NCBI GenBank assembly: GCA_017471825.1
Contig: JAFURQ010000016.1
Coordinates: 1 to 39,552, forward strand
Direction: 5' to 3'
DNA length: 39,552 nucleotides
Origin: Clostridia bacterium
GTDB taxonomy: Bacteria; Bacillota; Clostridia; Oscillospirales; CAG-272
Positions 8,788 to 25,491 of the stretch are shown here, in pieces. Each line of letters begins with the position of its first letter. The first letter of the stretch is position 1. The translations under genes were made by a program, and so were the position numbers. A model generated the notes under the pieces. It made no database searches, was not told the origin of the DNA, and saw nothing but the letters and a program-made list of their open reading frames with translations.

Positions 8788-11700
8788 ATGAAAAAATTCA
8801 GCAAGCTGCTTGCGCTTTTTCTTGCGCTTGCAATGCTCTTTGCCGTAGCTCTTCCTCTCACCTCCTGCGGCGGTGACGACGAGTGTACGGAGCACGTAGA
8901 TGCCGACACAAACGGCAAATGCGATAAATGTGACGCGGAGGTTTCGGTTACGCCTACCCCCGGTCCTAACGGTAAGGCTACCTACACCGTAGTTGTTCAA
9001 TCGGCCGGCGGATACGCCCTCAAGGACGTTATCGTTACGGTTATTGATACCGCAACCGGCTCTATGATTGATTGGCAGAAAACCGACGAAACGGGTACCG
9101 CAACCTTCAACATTCCCGTTTCCACTACATACGCCGCACGGCTCAGTCAGGATGACCTCCCCGCAGGCTACGTTGCCCGCGAGCAGTATCCCTTTGCCGC
9201 AACCGGCACAACTGTTATAAAGCTCTCCACACAGCTTGTTGAGGATACGGGACTTGCAGGCGTTTCCTATCAGCTCGGTGACATAATGCACGACTTTACC
9301 CTCACCGATCCCGACGGAAACTCCCATACGCTCTCCGATATTTTTGAATCGGGCAAAAAGGCGGTTGTTCTTAACGTCTGGTACACCACCTGTACCTACT
9401 GTCTGCAGGAATTCCCCAGCATTCAGGAGGCATACGAGCTTTATAAGGACGAGATAGAAATCCTCGCTATTAACGATTACGCAGCGGACAGCGCTCTCTC
9501 CGTCAAGAACTTCAAGGCTGACTACGAATATACCTTCCCGATGATGAAGGATACCGTCGGTCTTAACGATGCCTTCGGCTTTACTGCCGCACCCTGCTCG
9601 GTGGTTATCGACCGCTACGGTATGATAAGCATAATCGAGGTTGGTGCCGTAATCGGCACGGGCTATTGGACAAAGGCGTTTGCTCACTACACGAGCGACG
9701 AGTACGTTCAGTCTACCTACGCATCCCTCTACGAGCTTTCCCCGCAGGAGAAGCCCGACAAGGAAATGCCCTCGAGCGATGAGCTTGCCGCCGCCTTCAA
9801 CGGCTCGGATCTCACCGTTACCTATAAGCCCGAAACCGACCCCACCGACGCGGAATTTTCCTGGCCCTTTGAAATCGTCGAATTCGACAAGGAGGGAATG
9901 GATAAGGTAACCTGCATCCGTCCCACCAACTACGGCAAGGATAATTCATACGCAACCCTCTATGCCGAGGTTTATCTCGAGGAGGGCGAGGCGCTCCTGT
10001 TCGACTATTTTTCGTCAACTCACAACGACAACACCACGGGCTCTTATGACGTTATGTACGTCCTCGTAGACGACAAGGATATCTACTCCATCGCCGGCGT
10101 GGAAAAGGACGGCTGGCAGACTGCATGCGCCTTCGTAGCCAATGAAAGCCGCACCTATGAGGTCGCCTTTTGCTACATAAAGGACTCCGCTAACAGCGCA
10201 GGCGACGACACCGTTTACCTCAAGAGCCTTCGCGCTATTCCCAAGGAGGATATAGAGCTTGAGGAGGTATACATCTTCCGTCAGGCTGCAACCGAGCCCA
10301 AGGCCGATAACACCGGCTATAACGATTACGTAAGCGTTGTTCTCGGTGAGGACGGCTACTATCACGTTGGCACCGCAGACGGACCTATCCTTCTTGCCAA
10401 CCTTATCGGATATACCAATTTTGACCCCGACAGCACCGTTACAATCAAGCTTTACGAGGCTGATAACAACTATCAGTTTATGATAAACGGTGAGAACAAA
10501 TTCAATCAGTTTGAAATGTACTGCAACTACGCCTCAAACTCACAGCTCTACGGCTACGCAAGCGTTACCGAGGAGCTTGCAGGCTACCTTAAGGCGTTCG
10601 TTCAGAAGTACGCTCTTTCGGTAGGTAAGATTCCCGGCGAAAACACATGGCTCGAGCTTTGTGTTTATTACGATTCTTACGGAACTAACGGTGAGCAGCT
10701 TGAGGACCCTATCAAGGGACTTGCATCCTTCAGCTCCTATGAGGCACTCGAAACCCTCGATGCAGAGAACCCCGTTTACAATTCCGTTGAGTACAACCGC
10801 GTGATTATGCCCCGCGGACTCCTCTACAAGTTCGTTCCCACCAAGTCGGGCGTATATCGCGTTGTTTCGCAGAGCAAGCAGGAGGTTGTCGGCTGGATAT
10901 TCCAGGGCAACCACGACGAGTGGGCATCTGTCGGTGACAGAAAATTCGTTGCCGATTCTAACGCAGGCGAGCGCCTTAACCTCGACCTTCTTGTAGAGAA
11001 CGAGAATGGCGTTGTGGAGCGCGACCTCACCAACTGCTCGGTTGTGGCATATCTCGAGGAGGGCGTTGAGTATTATATCGCAATAGCTCTCTACGAAACC
11101 ACAGGCACGGGTAAATTCACCTTCACCGTAAGATACGCCGCAGAGGAGTTTGACTATTTCCGTGAGGCAAGCCCCGGATACTTCACCTATGAGGAGGGAA
11201 CCGACGGAAGCGTTGGCAATATGCTCGCAGGCGGTATCGACGTTGTTCTCGGTAACGACGGATATTACTACCACAAGATAATCACCGACTCCGCAACGGG
11301 TGCGTGGGAATACGGCTCTCCCGTATATGCGGATTTTATCTGGACAACCAACACCTTCCCCACGAAAACCCTGACGGAGCTTATAGAAACCTACGCCTTC
11401 GACTTCTCGAAGACCGCAGGCGATATTGAGGCAATAGCCTACTATAACACCTATGCAAAGCTCGGCTTCTCCGACTACTGGAAGAAGGAAACCGACTTTG
11501 AATCCAGATGGACAAACGAATACGAGGCAGAGGCGAAGCTCAACGAGCCCGCGTGGCGCGAGGCGTTTGAGAAGGAGTGGCTCGCCGCTAACGAGGCTGT
11601 CCTGGATAACTATACCGAAGAGGATATAACCAAGTATAAGAACAAGGCTTGGGAAAGCTACTATGAAGAGAAGCTCGAGGAGGCAAAGGATGACCTCTGG

Positions 11701-12123
11701 GCTGCTGAATTTGAGCTGATCCTTGCCGAAAACCCCGAAATTGAGCAGATTGCCGCGGACCTTTATCTCGGCATATCTCACGACACCGAGCTCGCACAGC
11801 AGTATCACGAGTATGCTGTCGCAGGTCTTAAAACCCTTTGGGGCGATGACTTTGACGGTAACTGGAGCTTCTATGCGTACGACGACGTCCTCGACGGAAT
11901 TTTCCACGGCACAGGCACCGACTACACAGCCGCTATAAGAGAATATCTCGATGACGTGCTTGACGAGGCGGGCTTCCCCGAAAGACAGGGATGCGTTCAG
12001 GTAGACGAGGAGCTTGCACAGATTCTTCAGATGCTTATGGACAAATATACGTTCAGAAACGTTGAGAACTCCTGGACCAAGCTTTGCTACTACTACGAGC
12101 ACCTCGGTCCTGCCGCAGAGTGA
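8788..12123 (+). CDS. Large lipoprotein with Cys-tag, SpaA/Cna-B-like domain and TlpA-like thioredoxin domain
   Basis: An 1111-aa lipoprotein (lipobox ending LTSC, Cys27). Domain order: a metal-site-like tag, C33-x11-C45-D-K-C48 with HVDADTNG inside; a beta-sandwich like Cna-B/SpaA or carboxypeptidase-regulatory domains (about 64-145); a TlpA/AhpC-type thioredoxin domain (about 163-300) with active site C202-T-Y-C205 and a Pro269 at the cis-Pro position; a region with PPC-like character (about 640-810); and two copies of a module marked by DGYYH and a later ENxWxxLCxYY (about 512-634 and 817-1108). The second copy is interrupted by a charged, Trp- and Glu-rich helical insert of roughly 180 residues. 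The ATG at 8788 follows AAGGAG; an in-frame TTG upstream is less likely. The thioredoxin domain should act in thiol-disulfide exchange outside the membrane. The rest is unrecognised. Confidence 0.85.
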   Translation: MKKFSKLLALFLALAMLFAVALPLTSCGGDDECTEHVDADTNGKCDKCDAEVSVTPTPGPNGKATYTVVVQSAGGYALKDVIVTVIDTATGSMIDWQKTDETGTATFNIPVSTTYAARLSQDDLPAGYVAREQYPFAATGTTVIKLSTQLVEDTGLAGVSYQLGDIMHDFTLTDPDGNSHTLSDIFESGKKAVVLNVWYTTCTYCLQEFPSIQEAYELYKDEIEILAINDYAADSALSVKNFKADYEYTFPMMKDTVGLNDAFGFTAAPCSVVIDRYGMISIIEVGAVIGTGYWTKAFAHYTSDEYVQSTYASLYELSPQEKPDKEMPSSDELAAAFNGSDLTVTYKPETDPTDAEFSWPFEIVEFDKEGMDKVTCIRPTNYGKDNSYATLYAEVYLEEGEALLFDYFSSTHNDNTTGSYDVMYVLVDDKDIYSIAGVEKDGWQTACAFVANESRTYEVAFCYIKDSANSAGDDTVYLKSLRAIPKEDIELEEVYIFRQAATEPKADNTGYNDYVSVVLGEDGYYHVGTADGPILLANLIGYTNFDPDSTVTIKLYEADNNYQFMINGENKFNQFEMYCNYASNSQLYGYASVTEELAGYLKAFVQKYALSVGKIPGENTWLELCVYYDSYGTNGEQLEDPIKGLASFSSYEALETLDAENPVYNSVEYNRVIMPRGLLYKFVPTKSGVYRVVSQSKQEVVGWIFQGNHDEWASVGDRKFVADSNAGERLNLDLLVENENGVVERDLTNCSVVAYLEEGVEYYIAIALYETTGTGKFTFTVRYAAEEFDYFREASPGYFTYEEGTDGSVGNMLAGGIDVVLGNDGYYYHKIITDSATGAWEYGSPVYADFIWTTNTFPTKTLTELIETYAFDFSKTAGDIEAIAYYNTYAKLGFSDYWKKETDFESRWTNEYEAEAKLNEPAWREAFEKEWLAANEAVLDNYTEEDITKYKNKAWESYYEEKLEEAKDDLWAAEFELILAENPEIEQIAADLYLGISHDTELAQQYHEYAVAGLKTLWGDDFDGNWSFYAYDDVLDGIFHGTGTDYTAAIREYLDDVLDEAGFPERQGCVQVDEELAQILQMLMDKYTFRNVENSWTKLCYYYEHLGPAAE

Positions 12124-12135
12124 TATAAATATGGC

Positions 12136-12165
12136 TTATGCGGCGCGGTGATCCGCGCCGCATAA
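12136..12165 (+). promoter_or_regulatory. Perfect intercistronic hairpin without T-tract
   Basis: TTATGCGGCGCGG (12136-12148) and CCGCGCCGCATAA (12153-12165) form a perfect 13-bp GC-rich stem with a TGAT loop, between the first and second lipoprotein genes. No T-run follows, so it is not a standard terminator. An mRNA-stabilising or processing hairpin that sets different expression levels is more likely. Confidence 0.6.
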
Positions 12166-12185
12166 TGCTTCACAAAGGAGAAACC

Positions 12186-14471
12186 ATGAACAAATATACG
12201 AAAATTATCTCCCTTCTTCTCGCCGCCGTAATGGTTTTCGGCTCCGCGCTTGCGCTTTTTTCCTGCGGCGATAACGGTGATGATAATCCCCCCACCCCCA
12301 CGCCCACACCCGTTACGTATAAGGTAAACGTAACCGATGCTTTCGGCGCGGCACCCGAGGGCTTTACGGTTGTAGAGCTTTACAAAAACGGTGAATACGT
12401 TGAGCAGCAGCGTACCGACAGTAACGGTACTGCCACCTTCTCAAAGGTGCCCCACAGCTATACCTTCAAAATAATCTTTGCAAAAGAAAACAGATATACC
12501 TACGACGAGTCGCTTGCAACCCTTTCGGCGACAGCCACCGAGGCGAATATCACGGTATATAACTTCGCAGGCAATAAAACGCAGATAAGCGTACCCTGTA
12601 TCAATCACGCGGATGCGGACGGCGATTACCGCTGTGACTATTGCTTTATGGATACGCATTGTCCCGGCTTTGTCGATGAAAACGGCGACGCGCGCTGTGA
12701 TATATGTCTTACCAAGGTTCCGTGCTCGGTATTTGCCGATGCGGACGCCGACGGAATTTGCGATAAGTGCGGAGTAGCAGACCACTGCGTAGCCTTCGTT
12801 GACGAAAACGGCGACGCGCGCTGTGACAACTGCGACGAGCCCGTGCCATGCTGTGCATACGTTGACGAGGACGAGAACGGAAAATGTGACGTTTGTATGA
12901 TAGCAAACCACTGCGCCGTGCACGTCAAGGAGGAGGGCGAGAAAAGATGCTCTGCCTGCCGTATGCTCATACCATGTACCTATTACGTTGACGAAAACGG
13001 CGATGCTACCTGTGACGATTGCGGTGCAACCGTTCACTGCCTCGAGCTTGCCGATACCGACCTCAACGGCAAATGCGATAACTGTAACGGCACCGTTCAC
13101 TGTACCGTTCACCGCAACCCCAGTGTCAGCGATGACGTAGACGACAGACTCTGCGATATTTGCGGAACGATAGTTCCTTGCGACAGCTACGTTGACGAAA
13201 ACGGCGACAACAAGTGCGATACCTGCGGTGCGCAGGCGCATTGTCCGGGCTATACGGACGAAAACGGTGACAGACTCTGCGATATTTGCGCCGAGCCGGA
13301 TTATGAAACGAACGGCAGAGTCGATTACAACGCCACCGAGCTCTCCGAGGGCGCAACAAGGGTTGAAATAGACCGCCCCGAGCTCACCTACTTCATATTT
13401 ACACCCACCCGTGCAGGCACGTATAAGTTTTCATACGAGATTGACGGCGAGGCAGTGTTCGGCAATTTCGGAATGCCCAATTTCGTTCAGAAGGACACTC
13501 TTACCGACGTGACCGACGGCGTATTTACCGCTAACGTTACCGCAGGAAGCATAGGCAACGATCTCGGCGGCACGCTCAAAATGGTTATCGGTATTGCATC
13601 GCCCACCGCCAAAACCGCTATAATCAAGATTGAGAGAATAGGCGATGCGGTTGAGGCTATTCCCGACGTCGAAATTCAGCCCGACCCCGATATTCAGAAA
13701 TATCACAGCCCTCTCAACAGCTCGTACGTCGATATAGACCTCACAAATCCCGACGTTAAGGTTGTCTTTAACGAAAACGACGGCTACTACCACTACGGAA
13801 CCGCAAACGGTCCCCTCGTGCTTGTGAAAATCAGCGTCGGCGGCAATTCGAGCGTTCCCGGTCTTATCCTTCCGTCCTTTACTACTATTTGTGAAAACGA
13901 CAGAATGGGTAAATATTTCTACGAGGGCGACACTCTCGTATCAAAGGAAACTTACAACTACCTTATTTCAGTATATGACGAGCTCTCCGGCTCCAACGGT
14001 ATGCGTCCTCTCGATAAGAAGATGGAGATGGTAATTAAAAATACCGGTGACCAGAAGGGCTGGTGGATGCTTGAGGGCGGCCTCAGCATATTCGGCGATG
14101 ATGCCGACAGAGTAGTTGCGGAAAACGCGTGGCTCTTTGCCTGCTGCTACGAGGTGAAGAACACCTACGGCACAGAGAGCTCACCCGTGGAAATTGAATC
14201 GACGAGAGAGGCAGAGCCTACGCCGAGCACCGATGCGGTTGTTGCTCCCGTCCTCGCCGTAAACGTTAACGGTACGGTTTACGCATTCCTCGGCGGCGAG
14301 GATGCAGAGCTCACCTTCACCGATGCGAGCGGAGTGACGGTTGTCTACAAGGGCACCGAGTATACCGCGAACGCAAACGGAGTGATTACCCTGACCGTAT
14401 CCGCGGGCGATACGCTCACTATTACTGCGGATAGCGAAAGACTCGTTACCCTGACCGCAAAGGCAGTTTGA
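12186..14471 (+). CDS. Lipoprotein with eleven tandem Cys-rich (C-x11-C-D-x-C) repeats
   Basis: A 761-aa lipoprotein (lipobox ending LFSC). After a Thr/Pro linker there is a Cna-B/SpaA-like beta domain (about 43-135). Residues about 138-373 are eleven tandem units, ten of 21 aa and one of 26 aa, each with three cysteines in the pattern C-x11-C-D-x-C around a V-D-E-N-G-D-like core. Most units end alternately in His or Pro just before the next Cys. The pattern is not CxxCH, so it is not a multihaem cytochrome. The Asp/Asn spacing recalls Ca-binding DxDxDG loops (Excalibur or thrombospondin type 3), and the Cys pairs could bind metal or carry disulfides. Further on are a PPC-like beta domain (about 380-500), one DGYYH...ENAWLFACCY module (about 523-664) shared with the upstream lipoprotein, and a C-terminal beta domain. 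AAAGGAG precedes the ATG; an upstream in-frame start falls within the hairpin and is rejected. Confidence 0.85.
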   Translation: MNKYTKIISLLLAAVMVFGSALALFSCGDNGDDNPPTPTPTPVTYKVNVTDAFGAAPEGFTVVELYKNGEYVEQQRTDSNGTATFSKVPHSYTFKIIFAKENRYTYDESLATLSATATEANITVYNFAGNKTQISVPCINHADADGDYRCDYCFMDTHCPGFVDENGDARCDICLTKVPCSVFADADADGICDKCGVADHCVAFVDENGDARCDNCDEPVPCCAYVDEDENGKCDVCMIANHCAVHVKEEGEKRCSACRMLIPCTYYVDENGDATCDDCGATVHCLELADTDLNGKCDNCNGTVHCTVHRNPSVSDDVDDRLCDICGTIVPCDSYVDENGDNKCDTCGAQAHCPGYTDENGDRLCDICAEPDYETNGRVDYNATELSEGATRVEIDRPELTYFIFTPTRAGTYKFSYEIDGEAVFGNFGMPNFVQKDTLTDVTDGVFTANVTAGSIGNDLGGTLKMVIGIASPTAKTAIIKIERIGDAVEAIPDVEIQPDPDIQKYHSPLNSSYVDIDLTNPDVKVVFNENDGYYHYGTANGPLVLVKISVGGNSSVPGLILPSFTTICENDRMGKYFYEGDTLVSKETYNYLISVYDELSGSNGMRPLDKKMEMVIKNTGDQKGWWMLEGGLSIFGDDADRVVAENAWLFACCYEVKNTYGTESSPVEIESTREAEPTPSTDAVVAPVLAVNVNGTVYAFLGGEDAELTFTDASGVTVVYKGTEYTANANGVITLTVSAGDTLTITADSERLVTLTAKAV
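12597..13303 (+). repeat. Coding tandem repeat: eleven ~63-base units
   Basis: Eleven in-frame units encode the Cys-rich repeat. Nucleotide conservation is patchy but high in places: the run encoding ENGDARCD is identical near 12677 and 12800. One unit (the ninth, near 13100) carries a 15-base insertion. The pattern indicates repeat growth by duplication followed by divergence under selection for Cys, Asp and Gly positions. Confidence 0.85.
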
Positions 14472-14529
14472 TAAAAGAGTCGAAAATTGTAAAAAACAAA
14501 CATTAAAGACTATACCATGGAGGAAAAAT

Positions 14530-15234
14530 ATGAGAAATTTTAAGAGAATACTCACTCTCCTGCTTGCTCTCGCGCTCACGCTTTCTCTCGCTCTTGCCAT
14601 CACCTCATGCGGTGGCGACCCCGACTGCACATCTCACGTTGATGCAAACGAGGACGGAAAGTGCGATAATTGCACGGCAGACGTTGAGCTCCCGACAAGC
14701 AAGACCGAGTACACCGTAACCGTTAAGGACGAAAACGGAGCAAAGGTACCGGGCGTTCAGCTTACCATCAGCAACCTCTCGGGCAAGACCGAGGTGCTTA
14801 CCACCGATGCAAACGGCGTTGCCAAAGGCGAGCTTATTGATGACAAAACCGTTGTGCGCGTAACCTACGTTTCGGTTCCCGACGGATATTACCTTCCCAC
14901 GACGAAGCCCATGTTTGACAAGGACGCAACCTCCTGCACGGTTACTATCAAGGTTGACGAAAGAATAACTCACACCGTTAAGGTTGTTGACGAGGCAGGC
15001 AATGCGGTTGCCGGACTTTCTATGATGATTTGTCAGCAGGCGTGCCAGAATCCCGTAACCACAGGTGAGGACGGAATCGCGATATTCAAATTCATTCCCA
15101 TTGAATACGACGTTAAGGTAAAGATTGCCGACAGCGCCGCCACCTACGAAATTGTAGGCGAGCTTGACGAAGAGGGATACGTTCATTTCCCCGAGGGAAC
15201 AACCGAGTTTGAGATTGTAGTAAAAGCAAAATAA
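14530..15234 (+). CDS. Small lipoprotein with Cys-tag and two Cna-B-like domains
   Basis: A 234-aa lipoprotein (lipobox ending AITSC). Immediately after the lipid anchor lies one copy of the C-x11-C-D-N-C tag (CTSHVDANEDGKCDNC). Two beta-sandwich domains of the SpaA/Cna-B or carboxypeptidase-regulatory type follow: about residues 60-140, starting TEYTVTVKDENGAKVPGV, and about 143-232, starting THTVKVVDEAGNAVAGL. The second contains an extra CQQAC pair. This is the short version of the N-terminal architecture of the two upstream lipoproteins. GGAGG precedes the ATG and a strong terminator follows, so it is the last gene of the cluster. It could be a lipid-anchored partner or substrate of the redox proteins. 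No enzymatic motif is seen. Confidence 0.8.
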   Translation: MRNFKRILTLLLALALTLSLALAITSCGGDPDCTSHVDANEDGKCDNCTADVELPTSKTEYTVTVKDENGAKVPGVQLTISNLSGKTEVLTTDANGVAKGELIDDKTVVRVTYVSVPDGYYLPTTKPMFDKDATSCTVTIKVDERITHTVKVVDEAGNAVAGLSMMICQQACQNPVTTGEDGIAIFKFIPIEYDVKVKIADSAATYEIVGELDEEGYVHFPEGTTEFEIVVKAK

Positions 15235-15247
15235 TCCCAACCGACAA

Positions 15248-15283
15248 AAAAGCGATGCGCCACAGCGCATCGCTTTTCCTTTT
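15248..15283. terminator. Bidirectional terminator between the lipoprotein cluster and the Fe-S/TlpA operon
   Basis: AAAAGCGATGCGC (15248-15260) and GCGCATCGCTTTT (15265-15277) form a perfect 13-bp stem with a CACA loop, flanked by A- and T-rich tracts on both sides. It sits between the convergent ends. Confidence 0.85.
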
Positions 15284-15287
15284 ATAT

Positions 15288-16871
15288 TCAGTTTAATTCA
15301 CCTTCAACGACAGCGCGAAGCTCCTCGTAGGTTACCTCGTGCATAAACTTTTCAATGATTATACCGTCACCGTCAAGGATAATTGTAATCGGGTAGGCGC
15401 CCGTGCCGCCGAGCATTGTGTAATACTCGTCAGCCGTTGCCGAGGGGTGAGTCTCGTCCTTACCAAAGAGCATCTCGGAATCGGGGTAATGCTCGCGAAT
15501 ATAATCGTCTGCACCCATAGCGGAGTCGAAGTCGAGAACAGTATGCACGGCAAACACCGTAACGCTGTCCGAATACTCGCTCGCTATTCTGTCGAAATAG
15601 GGAAGCTCCTTCAGACATCCGGAGCACCAAACGCCCCAGAAATTGATGATAGTTATTTTATCGCGGTTGTTCGCGGGATTGAAGGTCTCGCCCGTGAGTC
15701 CGTTTTCGTCAACGAGCTTAATATCGTAGCCGTAGCAGGGATATCCGACCTCGTTGCCTATAAGAGTGCGGCACTCGTCACAGTAATCGTCGCCGTTTTC
15801 GTCAACGTGTATCGTGTGCGGCTCCTCGTATATGAAATTGTAGTAAACGAGAGCGGACGCAAGCAGTGCCGCCGCAAGAACAGCGGCGGTTATCTGAAGC
15901 ACGAGATTGCGCTTCTTAACCTTCGTACGCTTTACCTCAAGCTCCGCCTTTTCCACATCATCAAGCGGCGCGCCCTTTTCCTTCGCGGCGTCGATTTCGT
16001 TAGGGGGAAGGAATATCTTCGAGCCGCTCCAGCGAATAGCGTTGGTCGGGCAAACGTCAAGGCATTCTCCGCAGTTGACACACTCGTGGTCGCCGACGTG
16101 GCTTATATCGACCTTACATTTGTTGATACAGCGTCCGCAGTCAACGCACGCCGATTTTTCAAGCTTGATTCCGAGAATGGAGAACTTGTTGAAAAGACCG
16201 TAAAGAGCGCCGAGCGGGCAGAAGAAACGGCAGAAAAATCTGTATATGAATATAGAACCGACAATAAATGCAACGAGCAGGGCGAATTTCCAGGTGAAAA
16301 GCGGACCGAGCATACCAAGGCTGCTTTCATTGACCTTGTTATAAAGAAGTCCGATTGCACCCTCAAGGGTTCCTGCGGGGCATATGTATTTACAAAATGC
16401 AGGAAGCGGAACGTTCCTGATTCCGTAGAGTATAGGAACAATAACGACCAGAAATACGAGAATAACGTATTTCAAGTAGGAAAGAACCTTCGTAAACTTG
16501 TTCTTTTTAAGCTTAGGCGTGGGAATCTTGTGCAAAAGCTCCTGTATAAGACCGAAGGGACAGAGAAATCCGCATATCGTGCGTCCGAGGATAATTCCGT
16601 AAAGAAGAATTATACCTATAACGTAATACGGAGTGCGCTTTCCCGAATTTGCAAATGCATTCTGAAGCGAGCCGAGCGGACACGCGCCCGATGCGCCGGG
16701 GCAGGAATAGCAGTTAAGTCCGGGGGCGCAGGCGTTTTTCAAGGGACCCTTGTAAATCTGACCGCTTATAAAGCCCTTGATATTCGCGTTAAAGAGCAGA
16801 GCGGTGTAGAGCTGAATGAGCCTTCTTTTCGTAGGGATAAGTGATTTTAATTTGGTAAAAAGCTTCGTCAT
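15288..16871 (-). CDS. Membrane 4Fe-4S protein (NapH-like) fused to an extracytoplasmic TlpA thioredoxin
   Basis: A 527-aa fusion. Residues about 20-230 form a polytopic Fer4_5/NapH-type membrane part with repeated CxxCP-type motifs: CYSCPG (54-59), CGFLCPFG (100-107), CKYICPAG (160-167) and CRFFCPLG (214-221). Residues 242-274 hold two classical [4Fe-4S] ferredoxin motifs, CVDCGRCINKC and CVNCGECLDVC followed by P. A further membrane helix spans about 323-347. Just after it, outside the membrane, comes a copy of the locus-wide tag with His in place of the first Cys (H352-x11-C364-D-E-C367). The C-terminal domain (about 380-527) is TlpA-like with active site WC416-S-G-C419 and GAYP as the cis-Pro loop. 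Inferred role: carry electrons through Fe-S clusters to reduce an outward-facing thioredoxin, in place of CcdA/DsbD. It follows the upstream operon gene by 5 bases. Confidence 0.9.
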   Translation of the reverse strand: MTKLFTKLKSLIPTKRRLIQLYTALLFNANIKGFISGQIYKGPLKNACAPGLNCYSCPGASGACPLGSLQNAFANSGKRTPYYVIGIILLYGIILGRTICGFLCPFGLIQELLHKIPTPKLKKNKFTKVLSYLKYVILVFLVVIVPILYGIRNVPLPAFCKYICPAGTLEGAIGLLYNKVNESSLGMLGPLFTWKFALLVAFIVGSIFIYRFFCRFFCPLGALYGLFNKFSILGIKLEKSACVDCGRCINKCKVDISHVGDHECVNCGECLDVCPTNAIRWSGSKIFLPPNEIDAAKEKGAPLDDVEKAELEVKRTKVKKRNLVLQITAAVLAAALLASALVYYNFIYEEPHTIHVDENGDDYCDECRTLIGNEVGYPCYGYDIKLVDENGLTGETFNPANNRDKITIINFWGVWCSGCLKELPYFDRIASEYSDSVTVFAVHTVLDFDSAMGADDYIREHYPDSEMLFGKDETHPSATADEYYTMLGGTGAYPITIILDGDGIIIEKFMHEVTYEELRAVVEGELN

Positions 16872-16876
16872 TCAAA

Positions 16877-17695
16877 TCACCCCAATCCTATACATTCGGT
16901 GCAAATCTTGACCGCCTTGGCGAGCACGTCTGCCATACCGCCGTTGCTTATGCCGAGTATGACGAATACGACACCCACTACTACCACCGTACATTTAGCG
17001 GAAATCGAAATAACCCGTCCGTGCTTTTCAAAAAACGAGGAGAGCGCGGATTTTTTATTTTCTTCCGCTTCCCTTGCCGCGTTTGCGGTATTACTTGTAA
17101 GCGCCGCTCTGATAAGCTCGCATTCGCGCTTCATACTGCTCTCGGCAACAAACAGTGCCGCAACAGAGTACGCGGTGGGCAGGGCAAGCGACGCACCGAG
17201 AATTATCATAGCATCGGCAACCGAGGCATTTGCGGTATTCACGTTGTCGGCAGGGAAGGTAGCAGGCGAGAAAATGAAAATCAACGGATAAATCAACGAA
17301 AGAGCAAGAAGGACCGCGGCACCAATCCAAATGAGGCGGCGGCAGAGCTCCTCGCGCTTGATTTTTTGCGCACTCTCGGGCGCCGCTTCTACGCTGGCAA
17401 GCCTTTTTTTGAGTATCGCAAGAGTATCCTTGACTCTCGGCTTGTTCTTTTTCTTTTCATCGGTATCGAGCCAGATCTTGCCGATACCGCCGATAACCAC
17501 CGCCGCAATCGCTATGTAAACGGGAACCGCGATTTTCGAGAATGCAGAGGATATATTTTCTCTCGTAAACGGGCGGTCGCCGAGATTGTATATATTAACG
17601 CAGGAAACGACAAAAAGTACGCCAACGGCAATCAGAAGTATGCCGAGCGCGCACGTATATATCAATAGGATGCGTTTTTTCGTGCTTTCACTCAT
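16877..17695 (-). CDS. Polytopic membrane protein with C-terminal CD1871A-like CxxC segment
   Basis: A 272-aa protein with five predicted membrane segments (about 9-31, 54-74, 121-142, 162-183, 234-253) and a charged cytoplasmic-looking region (76-120). The last ~45 residues (CTVVVVGVVFVILGI, then NGGMADVLAKAVKICTECIG) strongly resemble the free-standing ~45-aa CD1871A-family CxxC membrane peptides of Clostridia. Here that element is fused to a four-helix domain I do not recognise. The CxxC is C265-T-E-C268. It is the first gene of the operon with the Fe-S/TlpA fusion, 5 bases apart, so it is probably a redox or assembly partner. The only AAAGGA upstream is about 19 bases from the ATG, an unusually long spacing, so start or expression level is uncertain. 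Confidence 0.75.
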   Translation of the reverse strand: MSESTKKRILLIYTCALGILLIAVGVLFVVSCVNIYNLGDRPFTRENISSAFSKIAVPVYIAIAAVVIGGIGKIWLDTDEKKKNKPRVKDTLAILKKRLASVEAAPESAQKIKREELCRRLIWIGAAVLLALSLIYPLIFIFSPATFPADNVNTANASVADAMIILGASLALPTAYSVAALFVAESSMKRECELIRAALTSNTANAAREAEENKKSALSSFFEKHGRVISISAKCTVVVVGVVFVILGISNGGMADVLAKAVKICTECIGLG

Positions 17696-18126: not shown

Positions 18127-21100
18127 ATGAAGAAAAGAACCCTAACAAGAGTAGCCTCTTCGCTTCTCGTTCTTCTTTTGGCGGTTGTGCTTCTCGTATC
18201 GGCGGTTATGCCGGCGTTCGCAGAGCAGGCTTACGAGGCGGCTTACATAAAGCAGCTCGACTCCGTCAACACGAATTACGAGCAGTACCTCGATGGCTCC
18301 GTGGTGCAAAAGCTCCCGGATACCGTCAAGGACACCGATGAAATTTCGGTAATCGTTCAGCTTGACGGTAGCGTCACCATCCTTGATGCTTATCAGGGCA
18401 CGGACAAGACTATGTCCCTTCCGGAATATGCGCTATCCGAGGAAGCGATGGACATCAGAAAGAATATTAACGCCGAAAGGAAAAGAATTCTCGCCGCGCT
18501 CGACGAGGAGGGAATATCCTATACCGCAGGCGCTAACTATAATACCGTCCTTGCAGGCTTTGAAATCGTGATTGTTGCAAAGGACTTTGAGGATACCTGC
18601 GATATTCTCGGCGACAGCGCAACCGCGATAGTGGGCGAGGTCTACGAGCCCTGCGAAACCCAGCTTGTTGAAAACGAGGTGGACTACTACGAGGACACGG
18701 GTATTTTCGATACCTCCGACTACGCATACGACGGCTCGGGCATGGTTGTTGCGGTTCTTGATACCGGTCTTGACTATACTCACTCGGCATTTGACGTATC
18801 TCGCTTCACCTCATCCTCGCTCGGACTTACCAAGGAGCAGGTTGCCGCAATTCTTGCGGACACAGAGGCAGCGGCGCGCGTAGAGGGACTCACCGCCGAT
18901 GACGTATATCTCAACGACAAGGTTCCTTTTTCGTTCGACTACGCCGATTCCGACCCCGACGTATATTCCATACATAACAACCACGGTACTCACGTTTCGG
19001 GCGTTATAGTCGGTAAGGATGACGTAATCACGGGTGTTGCTCCCAACGCACAGCTCGTGTCTATGAAAATATTCTCCGATACCTACGACAGCGCACGTAC
19101 ATCATGGATTCTCGCGGCACTTGACGACTGCGTAGCCCTTGGCGTCGACGTTATCAATATGTCGCTCGGTACCGCCTGCGGCTTCAGCCGTGAGATGGAC
19201 AAGGAGGCGGTCGGCGGAGTTTACGACAAGATTCGCGCGGCAGGAATCAGTATGGTAGTCGCCGCATCGAACAGCTATAACTCCACCTACGGCTCGGAGA
19301 AAAACGGTAACCTCGGACTTACCTCCAACCCCGATTCCGCTACGGTAGGCTCTCCCTCCACTTACGACGGTGCGCTCTCGGTTGCATCCATAATGGGTGA
19401 AAAGACTCCCTACCTCCTCTACGGCGATACCATTATGTATTTCGTTGAGGCGAGCAACAGCGCACAGGACGAGAAGAACTTCTTCAATGAAATTCTCCCT
19501 GCGGGCACCGATTCGATGAAGGTCGAATACGTTGTAATTCCCGGCTCGGGACGCCCCGCAGATTACACAGGTCTTGATATGACGGGCAAAATCGCCCTTG
19601 TACGCCGTGGCTCCACAACCTTCGAGGAGAAGGCAAACGCGGCACAGAAGGCGGGCGCACTCGGTATCATCGTCTACAACAACGTTGCAGGTGATATTAA
19701 GATGAACTCGGGTACCACCACCATTCCGATCTGCTCGATAGGTCAGGACGACGGTGAGCTTCTTGCGGCGGCAGGCGGCGGAACTCTCAGCATAAGCCGC
19801 GATCAGAAATCCGGTCCCTTCATCTCCGATTTCTCCTCTTGGGGTCCCACCCCCGACCTCGGCATTAAGCCGGAGATCACCGCACACGGCGGTAATATCC
19901 TCTCCGCAGTAACGGGCGGTACCTACGACCGTCTTTCCGGCACCTCGATGGCTTGTCCCAATATGGCAGGCTTCGTGGCTCTTCTCCGTCAGTACGTTAC
20001 CGACGCATTCCCCGAGATCGCAAACGATCCCGTTGAGGTTGCGGCACTCGTAAACCGTCTCTTTATGTCCACTGCGGACATTATGTTTAACAAAAACGGT
20101 CTTCCTTACGCTGTAAGAAAGCAGGGCGCAGGTCTTGCAAACCTCACCAGCGCAACCGAAACCACCGCTTATATAATGACCTACGACCGCCTTGACGGCT
20201 CGCTTATGGATAAAACCAAAATCGAGCTCGGCGACGACCCCGATAAGACGGGCGTTTACACACTCACCTTCTCGGTGAATAACTTCGGCACCTACGACCT
20301 TACCTACGACCTCAACGCATACGTTATGACCGAGGGCGTCAGCGATACCAGAACCCATAAGGGCGAAACCACCGTTACCGAGGAGGGCTACATACTCGGC
20401 GGCGCAACCGTAACGGTTATCTCTGTCGACGGTGAGGCAGGCAACGGCAAGAGAATCACCGTGCCCGCAGGCTCGATAGTAGACCTCACCGTGCAGATTA
20501 CCCTCAGCAACGAGGACAAAAAATACCTTGACGAATCCTTTGAAAACGGTATGTACGTCGAGGGCTTCATCACCCTTGATGCCGTTTCGGGCACAGAGGT
20601 TGACCTCGTTACCCCCTATCTCGCATTCTACGGCGACTGGAGTGAGGCTCCCATATTCGACCTTGATTACTTCGAAACCAACAAGGACGAGCTCGACGAC
20701 TCCATCGCAACCCTTGACAAGACTCTCCCTGATGCATACGCGACCCGTCCCATCGGCGGTATCGAGCTTGACTACGTAAACTATCTCGGCTCCTACTACT
20801 TCCTTCAGGATCCAAAGAATCAGACCATATCCGCGAACCGCGAGTACGTGTCGCTCTCTAACGTTGAGGGAACGATAAAATCCTTCCGCTACGTCTGGGC
20901 AGGTATGCTTCGTAACGCGGCGCGCATCGTTATCACCGTAACCGACTCGTCCACGGGTGAGGTCGTATTTGAAAGAACCGAATACGACGTCAGAAAATCC
21001 TACGGCGACGGCGGCTCAATCTATCCTGCAAACGTTGACGTTGAATTTGATGCGGCAGAGCATAATCTCAAAAACAACACCAAATACGACGTAAAGCTTC

Positions 21101-24100
21101 AGGCTTACCTCGACTACGATAACGATGGACTTGAAACCAACAAGAGCAATACCTTCGAGTTCCCGCTCTACGCCGATTTTCAGGCTCCCGCTATTACCGA
21201 CTGTGAGTTCTATACCGAGTACGATAAGGCGAACTATAAAATGCGCCTCTATGCAAAAATGGCAGTCTACGACAACCACTATGCAATGGCGATGCAGGTA
21301 GGCTATATCACGCTTGAGCAATTGGACGGTCAGCTCTCGCCCACTCTTAAGGGCTTTGACAGATATCCCGTTCCCGTTTACTCCAACCGCAACGATACCA
21401 CCTACGTTACCTACGAGCTCACCGATTACATCTATGATATCAAGGCTAACGCATACAACAAGAATACCTTTACGGTTGCCTGCTACGACTATGCTCTTAA
21501 CGAGGCAACCTACGAGATTCCGCTCCCCGACGAGTTCATCGACTTCTATTTTGAAGCCGACGATGAGCTTACCTACGATGCGGAAACCGACTCCTACGCG
21601 CTTACCCTCAGTCCCAATCAGGTCTATTCGCTCAACCCCCTCGCATATCCCACGACCGAATGGGCTGACCTTCTCGAATACAGCTGTGCAAACACTAAGG
21701 TTGCAAAGGTTGTGAATAACCGTGTAATAGCTGTTGGCTCGGGCGTCGCAACGATAATCGTAAAAAGCCCGAACACAGACGACTACACAACAGTAAGGCT
21801 TACCGTTCTGTCCGAGGATGACCCGAATTACAGATGGTTCGATAAGCCCGTAGCCGACGTCTTTAAGCTCACAGGCTACGAAACCCTCAAGGCATACTAC
21901 TTCCTCTCCAATACGGACAGAGATATAGGTGCTACGGGTGATGAGGTAATCTTCAATACCACCTCTTACTCGCTCGCAATGTTCCCCTCGGAGTCGGTAT
22001 GGCTCAAATATAAGCTCGATGCTTACTTCCCCGAGGCAACAGAGGTAATCTTCGAGTCCTCGAACGATAAAATAGTTACCATAGACCAAAACGGAGTTAT
22101 CACCGCACAGGCTGAGGGCTTCTCGTCTGTAAGCGTTCGCGTGCTCCTTGACGGCAACTCGACCTTCTACTCCGAAACGGTTGAAATCGAGGTCAAGGAT
22201 CCCTTCGTAACCAATAACGGCCCCGTTCTTAACAACTACTTCGGTCTCGGCGGCACCGTAACAATCCCCGAGGACCTTATGATCACCTCGATAGGCAACT
22301 ATGCCTTCTCCAATTACGACTATATAGCAAAAGGGGAGGGTGACGAGATCTCCGACGAGGATCCCACCACAACGAAAATCACCTTCCTTGGCGACTCCAC
22401 CATCAAGAAGGTAATAATTCCCGAGGGCGTTGAGTCCATCGGCGCATACGCCTTTGCAAACCTTACCGCACTTGAGGAGGTCGTTATCCCCTCAACCCTT
22501 ATGTCGATTGAATACGGCGCGTTCTACGGCTGTACAAATCTTAAAAAGGTGACCGGCATCGAGCACGTCAAGCTCTTCAATAAGGAGGCCTTCTTTGGCT
22601 GTAACCTTTCGGGAACCATCTCGCTTGACAACGCTCACGCAATCTCCGATTACGCCTTCGCAGGCAACAAGAATCTCAAGCAGGTAATCCTTCCTGAAAC
22701 CGTAAGCTCGATAGGCGCGTACGCGTTTGCCGCGGATACCTCGCTCTCCAAGGTGACGGTAAAGGCTGAAAGCCCCAAATACGGTCAGTACGTGTTCACG
22801 GGCTGTACCGCTCTTACGGAATTTGAGGCAAACACTGCCGTAATTCCCGCAGGCGCCTTCGCAGGCTGTACCGCACTTACTAAAATCACAATAGGCAAGG
22901 ACGTAAACGTTATCGGCGAATTTGCCTTCTACGACACAGGCGTAGCATCCTTTACCGTTGCCGCAGGCAATACGGTGTTCAAATCGCAGGAGAACGGCTC
23001 CTACCTCACCTCCGCGGACGGAACGACGCTTCTTCTCGTTTCTCCCACCGTGAGCGGAACCTTCACCCTTAACGATTCTGCAATCACCACCGTTGGCAGT
23101 GGAGCATTCTCCGCCAACTCAAAGATTAAAGAGGTTGTTATGCCTCACATAACGAGTGTCAGAGATTACGCATTTTATTCCTGTGTACGACTTGCTACTG
23201 TAACCCTCGGCGAGCTTTCCTTCATCGGAGACTACGCCTTTGCAAGCACATCTCTTACCGAGCTTCCGAGCTTTGCCGATGACCTTTCGGAAATAGGCAA
23301 ATACGCCTTCTCCTTCACCTCTCTTACCGAGGTTGAAATTCCTTCGGGAATGCACGTCGGCGAGGGTGCCTTTGCCGAGTGTAATAAAATAACGAAAATC
23401 GTAATAAACGACGGTGTCACCGTCGGTGAGGGTGCATTTATGCTTGACCGCAATATGAACCTCATCGATCCCGAGGAGGAGAGCACGCTCGACGAGTTCT
23501 CCTACGTCGATCCCGACACCGGCAAGCGCATCTATTTCTACGTATTCAAATCCGCACTTACCACCCTTGAAATAGGAAACGACGTAGTAATCGGCGACGC
23601 GGCATTCTTCGGTGCAAGCGCTCTTACCTCGGTTACTCTCGGCGACAACGTAAGCATCGGTGACCGCGCGTTCTATAACGCAAGCTCTCTTACCGACATA
23701 GATCTCTCCAGGGTTAAGTATATCGGCGAGCTTGCCTTCTCCGGTGACGTTCACTATACCTTCACCGACCAGTATTTCACAAGCTACTACATCAAGGGCA
23801 ATTCCTACGTTTACAGATACTATTCACCCAAGCTCAGAACGGTTGACCTCTCCTCGCTCGAGTACATAGGCAACCAGGCATTCCAGTACTGCCGCGAGCT
23901 CGAATCGGTAACTCTCGGCGAAAACCTCACCACCGTTTCGGCTAACGCCTTCGGCGCGTGCGAGAAGCTCTCCGACGTTAACCTTGAGCACGTAGTGTAC
24001 GTAAAGGAAAACGCATTCTCCGAAACCGCAATTACAAAGGCGGATCTCTCCGGAGCAATTTCGGTAGACGAATACGCGTTCATTTACGTTGAGGAGCTCA

Positions 24101-25491
24101 CAGAGCTCATCCTCAGCCCCGACGGAACAAGCATAGGTGAGGGCGCGTTTGGCGAGTGTGCCGCCCTCGGTACAGCCACCCCCGTCATCAACCTTGAATT
24201 TTCTGAGTATATCGGCGAGTATGCCTTCGCTTATACGGGCATAACCGAAGCAAATCTTTCAGCCGCAAAATCCATCGGTGATTTCGCGTTTATGAAGGAT
24301 CTTCGCGCCGACGGTACACGCACCCCCTTTGCAGTAACTCTTGGCGAGGCGGTTGAGTACATAGGCGATAACCCCTTCGCAATGTGCGCTCTCGAGCCCT
24401 TCACCTCTTCGGTTGTTGAGAAGGTTAACGGTGTAGAGTACATCCGCGAAATCAGCACCTTTGATATAAGCGATAACGTCAAGGTTATCGACGGCTCGCT
24501 CTACTGCGTTGTGCCCTACGGCCTTGAGCTCACAGTCTATACAGGCACGGGCGAGAGCGCTACCGTAGCAGACGGTACAGTACGACTTACCGCACTCTCC
24601 TTCGCAGGAAGCGACGTAGTAAACGTTCATCTTCCTCATACCCTCAACTCCGTAGGCGACAAGGCGTTCTACAAGTGTGACAGCCTCTCGCTCGTCGAGT
24701 TCAAGAGCTACTACGCTCCCATACTTGAGGAGGAGTTTGACCAGAATTACCACGACTCCTACGACAATATCCCCGCAACGGGCGAATACGAATTTAACCG
24801 TACCGTAGACTCCTCGAATACCGAGACGGTTTATAAGCAGGGCCTTGGCATCGTTCCGTACTATATGTGGAACGTTGCGACAGGCACCAAGTACAGCAAC
24901 GTCTATTACGGTGCAAACTTTGTTGACCGCATAGGCTACTACGATGCAGACCTCATAATGATAAGCCCCTCAAACGGTGAATCCTATGAAACCTTCATCT
25001 ACGGTCAGTACTTCAAGACGGTTATTAACGGCGCGCTTGCGGCAGATGACGTAACCCTCGCGGCAATCAAGGCAATAAACGCACTGCCAAATCCCGTTCT
25101 GCTTGAGCACGAGGCGCTCGTTATTGCGGCGCGTGAGGCGTACGACAGAATCGGTAGCCCCGAGCAGAGAGCTCTCATTACCGATCTCTACGCGGCACTC
25201 CAGACCGCAGAGAAGAGAATCTCGGTATTCAAGCAGGAGCAGAATCAGGAAAACACCCCTGACGAAGCCCCCGATACACAGACCCCCGTAACCGACGGTG
25301 ATAAAGGCAACGATACCGTTGTAGCGATAATCGTTACCGCCGTTCTCATCGCCGTTGCCACAGCGGCAATCCTTGTCAGATATTTTGCCGACAGGAAAAA
25401 TAAAGCAGCCCCCTCTCCGAGTGTCCAATCGGAGAATGAGGCGCCCATCGCCGCACAGGAAGAAAACGGCAACGACTCAACCAACAATTAA
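18127..25491 (+). CDS. Giant cell-surface subtilase (S8) with PA domain, Ig-like domains and BspA-type LRR repeats
   Basis: A 2454-aa exported protease. The signal peptide ends near AFA-EQ (about residue 32), followed by a pro-region. The S8 triad is Asp212 (VAVLDTGLDYTH), His286 (NNHGTHVSG) and Ser607 (SGTSMACPNMAG). A PA domain (about 461-545, GKIALVRRGSTTFEEKA) is inserted between His and Ser, as in lactocepin/C5a-peptidase proteases. Downstream come fibronectin-like beta domains, two Big_2-like Ig domains (about 1145-1228 and 1278-1358) and about 27 BspA-type LRR_5 repeats marked by IGxYAF (about 1385-2185). A three-helix segment of the AYDxL type (about 2310-2365), an acidic linker, one membrane helix (about 2397-2417) and a short charged tail end the protein. 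No LPXTG was seen, so it is anchored by the helix. Likely role: degrade proteins at the surface, with LRRs for binding host or matrix proteins. The ribosome-binding site AAAGG is about 13 bases from the ATG. Confidence 0.92.
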   Translation: MKKRTLTRVASSLLVLLLAVVLLVSAVMPAFAEQAYEAAYIKQLDSVNTNYEQYLDGSVVQKLPDTVKDTDEISVIVQLDGSVTILDAYQGTDKTMSLPEYALSEEAMDIRKNINAERKRILAALDEEGISYTAGANYNTVLAGFEIVIVAKDFEDTCDILGDSATAIVGEVYEPCETQLVENEVDYYEDTGIFDTSDYAYDGSGMVVAVLDTGLDYTHSAFDVSRFTSSSLGLTKEQVAAILADTEAAARVEGLTADDVYLNDKVPFSFDYADSDPDVYSIHNNHGTHVSGVIVGKDDVITGVAPNAQLVSMKIFSDTYDSARTSWILAALDDCVALGVDVINMSLGTACGFSREMDKEAVGGVYDKIRAAGISMVVAASNSYNSTYGSEKNGNLGLTSNPDSATVGSPSTYDGALSVASIMGEKTPYLLYGDTIMYFVEASNSAQDEKNFFNEILPAGTDSMKVEYVVIPGSGRPADYTGLDMTGKIALVRRGSTTFEEKANAAQKAGALGIIVYNNVAGDIKMNSGTTTIPICSIGQDDGELLAAAGGGTLSISRDQKSGPFISDFSSWGPTPDLGIKPEITAHGGNILSAVTGGTYDRLSGTSMACPNMAGFVALLRQYVTDAFPEIANDPVEVAALVNRLFMSTADIMFNKNGLPYAVRKQGAGLANLTSATETTAYIMTYDRLDGSLMDKTKIELGDDPDKTGVYTLTFSVNNFGTYDLTYDLNAYVMTEGVSDTRTHKGETTVTEEGYILGGATVTVISVDGEAGNGKRITVPAGSIVDLTVQITLSNEDKKYLDESFENGMYVEGFITLDAVSGTEVDLVTPYLAFYGDWSEAPIFDLDYFETNKDELDDSIATLDKTLPDAYATRPIGGIELDYVNYLGSYYFLQDPKNQTISANREYVSLSNVEGTIKSFRYVWAGMLRNAARIVITVTDSSTGEVVFERTEYDVRKSYGDGGSIYPANVDVEFDAAEHNLKNNTKYDVKLQAYLDYDNDGLETNKSNTFEFPLYADFQAPAITDCEFYTEYDKANYKMRLYAKMAVYDNHYAMAMQVGYITLEQLDGQLSPTLKGFDRYPVPVYSNRNDTTYVTYELTDYIYDIKANAYNKNTFTVACYDYALNEATYEIPLPDEFIDFYFEADDELTYDAETDSYALTLSPNQVYSLNPLAYPTTEWADLLEYSCANTKVAKVVNNRVIAVGSGVATIIVKSPNTDDYTTVRLTVLSEDDPNYRWFDKPVADVFKLTGYETLKAYYFLSNTDRDIGATGDEVIFNTTSYSLAMFPSESVWLKYKLDAYFPEATEVIFESSNDKIVTIDQNGVITAQAEGFSSVSVRVLLDGNSTFYSETVEIEVKDPFVTNNGPVLNNYFGLGGTVTIPEDLMITSIGNYAFSNYDYIAKGEGDEISDEDPTTTKITFLGDSTIKKVIIPEGVESIGAYAFANLTALEEVVIPSTLMSIEYGAFYGCTNLKKVTGIEHVKLFNKEAFFGCNLSGTISLDNAHAISDYAFAGNKNLKQVILPETVSSIGAYAFAADTSLSKVTVKAESPKYGQYVFTGCTALTEFEANTAVIPAGAFAGCTALTKITIGKDVNVIGEFAFYDTGVASFTVAAGNTVFKSQENGSYLTSADGTTLLLVSPTVSGTFTLNDSAITTVGSGAFSANSKIKEVVMPHITSVRDYAFYSCVRLATVTLGELSFIGDYAFASTSLTELPSFADDLSEIGKYAFSFTSLTEVEIPSGMHVGEGAFAECNKITKIVINDGVTVGEGAFMLDRNMNLIDPEEESTLDEFSYVDPDTGKRIYFYVFKSALTTLEIGNDVVIGDAAFFGASALTSVTLGDNVSIGDRAFYNASSLTDIDLSRVKYIGELAFSGDVHYTFTDQYFTSYYIKGNSYVYRYYSPKLRTVDLSSLEYIGNQAFQYCRELESVTLGENLTTVSANAFGACEKLSDVNLEHVVYVKENAFSETAITKADLSGAISVDEYAFIYVEELTELILSPDGTSIGEGAFGECAALGTATPVINLEFSEYIGEYAFAYTGITEANLSAAKSIGDFAFMKDLRADGTRTPFAVTLGEAVEYIGDNPFAMCALEPFTSSVVEKVNGVEYIREISTFDISDNVKVIDGSLYCVVPYGLELTVYTGTGESATVADGTVRLTALSFAGSDVVNVHLPHTLNSVGDKAFYKCDSLSLVEFKSYYAPILEEEFDQNYHDSYDNIPATGEYEFNRTVDSSNTETVYKQGLGIVPYYMWNVATGTKYSNVYYGANFVDRIGYYDADLIMISPSNGESYETFIYGQYFKTVINGALAADDVTLAAIKAINALPNPVLLEHEALVIAAREAYDRIGSPEQRALITDLYAALQTAEKRISVFKQEQNQENTPDEAPDTQTPVTDGDKGNDTVVAIIVTAVLIAVATAAILVRYFADRKNKAAPSPSVQSENEAPIAAQEENGNDSTNN
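22280..24690 (+). repeat. Coding region of about 27 BspA-like LRR_5 repeats
   Basis: Repeats of variable length (about 22-60 aa) each carry an IG-x-x-AF-type signature (for example IGAYAF, IGDYAF, VGEGAF, IGEYAF) followed by C/L-rich strand residues such as LTEVEIP or LKQVILP. The nucleotide sequence is diverged, so these are old protein-level repeats rather than recent DNA duplications. Confidence 0.85.

What the first reader, a model, noticed from the sequence alone, without database searches (positions are those of the whole stretch)
8788..17695. Candidate extracytoplasmic redox system tied together by a shared Cys motif
Seen: four proteins from two convergent operons share one short motif, C(or H)-x11-C-D-x-C with an inner V-D-x-x-x-G-like core. 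It occurs once in the 1111-aa lipoprotein, eleven times in the 761-aa one, once in the 234-aa one, and once (first Cys replaced by His) in the Fe-S/TlpA membrane protein right after its last helix. Two of the proteins also have TlpA-type CxxC domains (C202/C205 and C416/C419), and a fifth protein ends in a CD1871A-like CxxC. Inference: cytoplasmic or quinone electrons pass through Fe-S clusters to an outward thioredoxin and then to lipid-anchored partners, with the tag acting as a metal site, redox site or docking mark. I know of CD1871A/TlpA/Fer4_5 neighbours in Clostridia, but not of a described system containing these tagged lipoproteins.
Basis: partly seen in the sequence, partly recalled or inferred. 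Interest (0 to 1): 0.8.

Follow-up and report, generated by a model that had tools for sequence, protein, structure and literature searches.

The report
Surface redox genes; tag is incidental
Gut bacteria related to this one share a gene cluster that probably carries electrons through the cell membrane to thiol proteins on the surface, and the short cysteine motif that drew attention looks like a decoration of many surface proteins rather than what holds the cluster together.

Summary
The motif is real: once in the 1111-aa lipoprotein, nine strict plus two degenerate copies in the 761-aa one, once each in the 234-aa lipoprotein and the Fe-S/TlpA protein. It does not tie the system together. 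Twelve other proteins of the same genome carry it, among them a nuclease and a phosphoesterase, usually within 15 residues of a lipidated Cys. Only 2 of 21 Fe-S/TlpA orthologues and 4 of 70 relatives of the 1111-aa lipoprotein have it. Its genus-level link with the Fe-S gene (p=0.0025) is explained by an rpoB tree: it marks one clade, with or without the Fe-S gene. The redox cluster is real. CD1871A (CxEC) lies beside a Fer4_5 Fe-S membrane protein at 44 of 46 places in a class sample. In the window's relatives the Fe-S protein is usually fused to TlpA, with TlpA lipoproteins often nearby. CcdA/DsbD was not found in 35 of 36 genus genomes, nor MsrB in any of these. One CD1871A gene has TGA exactly at its first redox Cys. 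Best reading: a CcdA-independent Fe-S route to surface thiols. Donor, direction and clients are unproven.

The parts
8788..12123 (+). LP1: 1111-aa lipoprotein (lipobox Cys27, tag, Ig-like region, ResA/TlpA-type thioredoxin domain with C202/C205, ~800-aa tail without a Pfam match over cut-off or a PDB relative by sequence)
8884..8931 (+). single tag in LP1, 6 residues after the lipobox Cys
12186..14471 (+). LP2: 761-aa lipoprotein (ORF open from 12138) with the tag array and a tail that shares a DGYYHxGTAxGP stretch with the LP1 tail
12597..13289 (+). tag array in LP2: nine strict and two degenerate copies, usual period 21 aa
14530..15234 (+). LP3: 234-aa lipoprotein with Big_1/CarboxypepD_reg-like Ig domains
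14626..14673 (+). single tag in LP3, 6 residues after the lipobox Cys
15288..16871 (-). FeS-TlpA: 527-aa Fer4_5 membrane protein with two 4Fe-4S motifs predicted on the inner side, last helix 324-342, outward TlpA domain with C416/C419
15771..15818 (-). tag (His in first position) in the FeS-TlpA linker; found only here and, as a variant, in G023 among 21 orthologues
16877..17695 (-). M5: 272-aa protein with five predicted helices and a C-terminal CD1871A domain (CTECIGLG)
16892..16903 (-). CxEC of M5 (C265/C268), predicted on the outer face
18127..25491 (+). neighbour: 2454-aa subtilase (S8) with PA, Fn3-like and BspA-type LRR regions; a relative is present in 44 of 80 LP1 loci

Best explanation
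The window holds a lineage-specific form of a clostridial transmembrane thiol-reducing module. Electrons from a cytoplasmic donor (ferredoxin or quinol, inferred) enter the two 4Fe-4S clusters of the Fer4_5 protein. They cross the membrane by its Cys pairs together with the CxEC of the CD1871A domain (inferred), reach the fused outward TlpA domain, and pass on to the lipid-anchored TlpA protein LP1 and its partners, keeping surface thiols or disulfides in the right state where CcdA/DsbD is missing. The conserved gene linkage, the CxxC and Fe-S motifs, the fusion and a predicted topology are shown; electron flow, direction and clients are inferred. The C-x2-H-x-D-x-[ND]-x-[DN]-x-x-C-D-x-C-G tag is a separate, clade-specific module next to lipid anchors or in linkers of many unrelated surface proteins. 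It most likely binds a metal (Zn through Cys/His, or Ca through the acidic loop) as a small stalk element, and is not the basis of the linkage.
For: CD1871A and Fer4_5 within 300 bp at 44 of 46 places; 44 genomes hold both, 1 CD1871A only, 2 Fer4_5 only, of 291. M5-FeS adjacent on one strand in 32 of 32 LP1 loci that hold both. FeS in 35 of 80 LP1 loci, 26 of 43 with full flanks. LP1, M5 and FeS co-directional in L256, L258, L261 and, with LP2/LP3, in L209 and L222. FeS and TlpA are split adjacent genes in L249 and L253 but fused in the other 33 LP1 loci with FeS. All Fe-S and TlpA cysteines are invariant in 34 FeS rows (the two split ones left out), tag cysteines are not. PF02683 in 1 of 36 genus genomes, 10 of 14 controls positive. 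TGA exactly at the first CxEC Cys in G191. Tag: of 42 tagged genes with a credible lipobox call, 31 have the first tag 3-15 residues after the lipid Cys; a protein with 15 tag matches has no Pfam match at E<=1 and no NCBIfam match at E<=0.01; the tag is a clade trait.
Against: No biochemistry; donor, direction and clients unknown. 39 of 60 genus genomes have no FeS match although CcdA was found in only 1 of the 36 searched, so the module is no universal replacement; several are incomplete assemblies. 17 of 43 LP1 loci with full flanks show no FeS nearby. The FeS protein is far under the NapH/MauN cut-off, 81.7 against 213. The TGA case is one of 46 places, its hairpin is no better than shuffles (z -0.28), there is no Rfam match, and Sec machinery was not searched. 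LP1's CTYC and the CSxC consensus of its relatives lack the usual Pro, so an isomerase or oxidase role is open. Metal binding by the tag is inference from residue pattern alone; no family or PDB match supports it.
Confidence: 0.6

Rival explanations
1. One reading: the tag is a dedicated redox site, metal site or docking mark by which the outward TlpA recognises its lipoprotein partners.
For: Four tagged genes in one cluster. In L249 four and in L253 three neighbouring lipoproteins are tagged beside FeS/TlpA, and all 4 motif matches of the L249 genome are there. Genus-level association p=0.0025.
Against: No strict tag in 66 of 70 LP1, 54 of 57 LP2, 25 of 26 LP3 and 34 of 35 FeS relatives (the gene caller missed the LP3 of L187, which has a weak profile match, and looser matches exist in an LP2-like protein of G036 and in a 1319-aa neighbour of M5 in G046). 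Present in 12 other proteins of the own genome. Inside the tag clade 14 of 15 FeS+ and 7 of 8 FeS- genomes are tagged, p=1. Class sample: 2 of 10 tagged genomes have CD1871A against 42 of 280 others, p=0.65.
Confidence: 0.08
2. Electrons run inward: the module is an oxidising, disulfide-forming or thiol-oxidising path in which TlpA passes electrons from surface thiols through the Fe-S clusters to a cytoplasmic or quinone acceptor.
For: LP1 has CTYC and its relatives mostly CSxC; NapH-like proteins exchange electrons with quinones (recalled); no direction is visible in sequence.
Against: ResA-type domains are the nearest solved relatives, and ResA is a reductant (recalled). Two 4Fe-4S motifs on the predicted inner side and the lack of CcdA fit reduction better.
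Confidence: 0.2
3. The cluster serves one client, such as maturation of the neighbouring giant subtilase/LRR protein or of cytochromes, rather than general surface thiol homeostasis.
For: Subtilase/LRR gene in 44 of 80 LP1 loci, in 25 of them together with FeS; ResA in Bacillus serves cytochrome c (recalled).
Against: 36 of 80 LP1 loci show no subtilase in the DNA held, though some loci are short. Cytochrome c genes were not searched. MsrB, the Streptococcus client, was not found in any of 36 genus genomes, so it is not that client.
Confidence: 0.2
4. The tag spread inside the locus by recent DNA copying and has no function.
For: Neighbouring genes share it; the L249 copies are near-identical at DNA level; orthologues have low-complexity linkers at its place.
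Against: In the own genome, identical residues use the same codon in 179 of 307 within-locus and 2990 of 5280 between-locus comparisons (0.58 against 0.57), so no sign of recent copying there; C, D, N and H positions stay nearly fixed over 78 copies, though the search itself asked for some of them.
Confidence: 0.12

Closest known systems
CD1871A (NCBIfam NF040920) with '4Fe-4S binding protein' and 'TlpA disulfide reductase family protein' as annotated in Peptoclostridium acidaminophilum DSM 3953 (NZ_CP007453.1)
   Same: CxEC ending, Fer4_5-type membrane protein next door, TlpA nearby
   Different: In the window CD1871A is the tail of a five-helix protein, Fer4_5 is fused to TlpA, and large TlpA lipoproteins are added
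CcdA-Etrx-MsrAB2 pathways of Streptococcus pneumoniae (PMC3914529, abstract and section 14 read)
   Same: Transmembrane carrier feeding surface thioredoxin-fold lipoproteins
   Different: Carrier is CcdA fed by cytoplasmic thioredoxin; here Fer4_5/CD1871A, with no CcdA or MsrB found in the own genome
NapH/MauN ferredoxin-type membrane proteins (TIGR02163)
   Same: Membrane Cys motifs and two 4Fe-4S motifs
   Different: Far below the family cut-off; fused to TlpA; nap or mau neighbours were not searched for
ResA/StoA thiol-disulfide oxidoreductases
   Same: Fold and CxxC of both thioredoxin domains
   Different: Below the NCBIfam cut-offs; embedded in larger proteins
Excalibur and thrombospondin type 3 motifs (recalled; for Excalibur only a search listing with abstract starts seen)
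   Same: Short acidic DxDxDG-like loop with nearby Cys in surface proteins
   Different: Neither appears among the Pfam matches at E<=1; the tag adds CxxH and CDxC

Membership tests
CD1871A family (NF040920) | domain score over the curated cut-off | tested here: met
   38.9 bits against 32
CD1871A family (NF040920) | next to a Fer4_5 4Fe-4S membrane protein (seen here, not part of the family definition) | tested here: met
   5 bp between M5 and FeS in the window; 44 of 46 places in the class sample within 300 bp
TlpA/ResA-like thiol-disulfide oxidoreductases | AhpC-TSA/thioredoxin-fold match with a CxxC | tested here: met
   LP1 62.0 and FeS 27.6 bits against 26; C202/C205 invariant in 67 rows, C416/C419 in 34
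ResA (PRK03147) | score over the cut-off of 170 | tested here: not met
   75.5 and 37.9 bits
NapH/MauN (TIGR02163) | score over the cut-off of 213 | tested here: not met
   81.7 bits
Fer4_5 (PF12801) | score over the cut-off of 22 | tested here: met
   70.7 bits
CcdA/DsbD (PF02683) | DsbD_TM domain | tested here: not met
   not among the Pfam matches of the window proteins; no match in the own genome or 34 of 35 other genus genomes
Excalibur, EF-hand, TSP type 3 or zinc finger families, for the tag | Pfam profile match over cut-off | tested here: not met
   none over cut-off on a tag; weak hits only, such as zf-Di19 at E 0.027 over the tag of L047; PDB profile search best E 1.2
Metal-binding peptide, for the tag | binds Zn, Ca or Fe | not testable with these tools
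   needs metal analysis
Selenoprotein, for CD1871A of G191 | TGA in place of a conserved Cys plus SECIS and Sec machinery | tested here: inconclusive
   TGA at the first CxEC Cys; hairpin z -0.28; machinery not searched

The most novel reading that the evidence does not exclude
The CD1871A-Fer4_5 pair is a previously undescribed class of transmembrane thiol reductase: 4Fe-4S clusters drive a membrane CxEC (in one genome apparently UxEC) dithiol that reduces outward TlpA proteins, replacing CcdA/DsbD in anaerobic Clostridia. The anchor-proximal C-x2-H...C-D-x-C tag is an independent, unnamed metal-binding module of lipoproteins.
Probability: 0.35. Interest if true: 0.75.

Novelty: new variant of a known kind. 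Interest (0 to 1): 0.45.

Why it matters
How strict anaerobes without CcdA/DsbD send reducing power to surface thiols is unclear to me from what I read. A tight CD1871A-Fer4_5 pair, its fusion to TlpA and a possible selenocysteine at the CxEC give a concrete, testable candidate. Separating the tag from the redox system also keeps a motif shared by descent within a clade from being read as function.

Tried and rejected
Tag as tie: rejected after orthologue, genome-wide, class and tree tests. Msr as client: MsrB not found in 36 of 36 genus genomes at E<=1e-10. Recent within-locus copying of the tag: no excess of shared codons in the own genome. PADLOC: no match for the five proteins. Known fold for the tag: no meaningful PDB match. 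Known fold for the LP1 tail: in the 60 PDB matches shown of 89, only the TlpA part matches. SECIS by fold and Rfam: inconclusive. No tRNA gene in the 19 kb around the G191 site. M5 has no plasmid match. Literature: CD1871A gives 0 papers; 'TlpA family', '4Fe-4S binding protein', 'CXXC motif' (two of three) gives one paper, on Bacteroidetes iron deficiency, not opened; some searches gave listings with no paper on this system by title, one search gave none. PMC13188914 was seen by term passages only: no CD1871A and no NF040920. Scripts with errors: repeated with fixes. One search failed on frame, repeated. Counts were recomputed; of the 51 ORFs, L257 and L278 are one gene and the lipobox call in FeS is false, so 42 of the 44 calls are used.
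Full report
What is there. The window is contig C8 of a 1.63-Mb, 33-contig assembly, 89.8% complete. Three lipoprotein genes on the plus strand (LP1 8788-12123, LP2 12186-14471, LP3 14530-15234) face two minus-strand genes (FeS-TlpA 15288-16871, M5 16877-17695). Over 78 sixteen-residue copies collected with a loose pattern, position 4 is His in 64, position 6 Asp in 77, position 8 Asn or Asp in 76, position 10 Asp or Asn in 77, position 14 Asp in 73; Gly follows 58 of the 119 copies of all lengths. The full motif is thus C-x2-H-x-D-x-[ND]-x-[DN]-x-x-C-D-x-C-G. The pattern itself favours some of these residues, but not the His.

The tag is generic. A profile of twelve window copies has 50 matches at E<=1 in the own genome. 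Reading the regions shows 12 tagged ORFs outside the window. Pfam was run on all 12: it finds a DNA/RNA endonuclease, a calcineurin-like phosphoesterase with purple acid phosphatase N-terminus, Ig-like proteins and an LRR protein, and nothing clear for several. From the window, ten own-genome regions and 55 loci around tag matches in other genomes (29 genus, 10 class, 12 cluster-genome, 4 LP1 loci), a stricter pattern gave 51 tagged ORFs (50 genes; two own-genome ones and the L187 genes escape it). Of 42 with a credible lipobox call, 31 have the first tag 3-15 residues after the lipid Cys. A 396-aa protein with 15 pattern matches and 52 Cys matches no Pfam family at E<=1 and no NCBIfam family at E<=0.01.

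The tag is not a conserved part of the redox proteins. In 21 FeS-TlpA orthologues (own plus 20) the linker holds a tag only in the own genome and, as a variant, in G023. In an LP1 alignment of eight, only the same two have it; the rest have mostly Gly/Asp-rich linkers there. In 80 loci found with the LP1 alignment (191 stretches encoded a relative, the best 80 were kept; L187 is the G023 locus), a script called LP1 in 70, LP2 in 57, LP3 in 26 and FeS in 35; tags were in 4, 3, 1 and 1 of them. The gene caller missed an LP3 in L187 that has a weak profile match; a looser pattern also finds tags in an LP2-like protein of G036 and in a 1319-aa neighbour of M5 in G046.

Association test. But on an rpoB tree of 45 genomes (42 genus, 3 outside; 17 genus genomes, the own included, had no match and one, G059, too short a one, so 11 tagged genomes are not in the tree), all 21 tagged genomes fall in one branch of 23 with support 100/99. 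Inside it 14 of 15 FeS+ and 7 of 8 FeS- are tagged (p=1). Outside it 0 of 19 genus genomes are tagged although 3 have FeS. Independent pairs give no signal, but too few pairs differ for that test to reach significance. In the class sample 2 of 10 tagged genomes have CD1871A against 42 of 280 others (p=0.65, own left out). Against this, tags are clumped: in the L249 genome all 4 matches and in the L253 genome 3 of 5 lie in the cluster. Of 32 genomes chosen for their LP1 loci, 17 have tag matches at E<=1e-3, and 13 of these show no strict tag in LP1, LP2, LP3 or FeS of the locus held.

The redox module is wider than the tag. Of 291 class genomes, 45 have CD1871A and 46 the Fer4_5 protein, 44 both; 44 of 46 CD1871A places lie within 300 bp of Fer4_5. 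Of 19 CD1871A neighbourhoods fetched (a 20th region was fetched for a tag), 9 show a separate gene matching the LP1 TlpA part, and in 2 more, G284 and G326, Fer4_5 is fused to it; G284 also has an LP1-like gene facing FeS. In the named record NZ_CP007453.1 the order is TlpA protein, MFS transporter on the other strand, CD1871A, 4Fe-4S binding protein. In the window's genus Fer4_5 is fused to TlpA and CD1871A is mostly the tail of a longer protein. L249 and L253 carry Fer4_5 and a TlpA protein with its own N-terminal helix as separate neighbours, so the fusion joins parts that also occur apart. M5 lies directly beside FeS in 19 of 20 genus loci and in 32 of 32 LP1 loci with both. LP1-type genes lie near FeS in 8 of 20 genus loci, some on short contigs, and FeS lies in 35 of 80 LP1 loci, 26 of 43 with full flanks. 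Five loci have LP1, M5 and FeS on one strand in a row.

How it may work. Hydropathy and charge put the 4Fe-4S region (K/R-rich loop 215-323) inside, and the TlpA domain after helix 324-342 outside; M5 has five helices with its CxEC outside (simple rule). All Fe-S and TlpA cysteines are invariant in 34 fused FeS rows. Both thioredoxin domains match ResA best among solved structures. CcdA/DsbD was not found in the own genome nor in 34 of 35 other genus genomes searched; MsrB in none of the 36. I infer that electrons pass from a cytoplasmic donor through Fe-S clusters and the CxEC to TlpA and on to LP1. A hint is G191, where the CD1871A frame has TGA exactly at the first Cys of CxEC, next to an intact Fer4_5 frame. 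Sec there would mark that position as redox-active; a plain nonsense mutation or sequencing error is not excluded, the hairpin is no better than shuffles, and this is 1 of 46 places.

Known or new. The pieces are named in databases, but the term CD1871A occurs in no paper of the library searched, and a 2026 review of prokaryotic selenoproteins, searched by terms, names neither CD1871A nor NF040920 in its main text. The nearest worked-out system I read is CcdA-Etrx-MsrAB2, which it may resemble in role but not in carrier. I call it a new variant of a known kind.

Noticed in passing
L165:1501-1611 (G191:C17:29424-29534): CD1871A gene with in-frame TGA exactly at the first Cys of CxEC, beside an intact Fer4_5 frame: selenoprotein candidate
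   Followed up: partly
L039:4788-5978 (G000:C13): 396-aa protein made mostly of tags (15 pattern matches, 52 Cys), with no Pfam match at E<=1 and no NCBIfam match at E<=0.01
   Followed up: partly
window 18127-25491: Giant subtilase with BspA-type LRR; a relative lies in 44 of 80 LP1 loci
   Followed up: partly
window 9688-12123 and 13308-14471: LP1 and LP2 tails share a DGYYHxGTAxGP stretch (E 2e-5); no known family found
   Followed up: partly
L168, L174, L175, L177, L178: Genes that look like a response regulator and sensor kinase by their first residues lie near the CD1871A/Fer4_5 region; not tested with profiles
   Followed up: no
L175:435-1616: 393-aa ORF with MsrA- and MsrB-like motifs (regex only) about 3.4 kb from the CD1871A gene
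   Followed up: no
L040 (G000:C2) and G383:C20, C13: Neighbouring tagged ORFs, so tagged genes clump elsewhere too
   Followed up: no
G000: No rpoB (PF00562) match in the own assembly, probably an assembly gap
   Followed up: no
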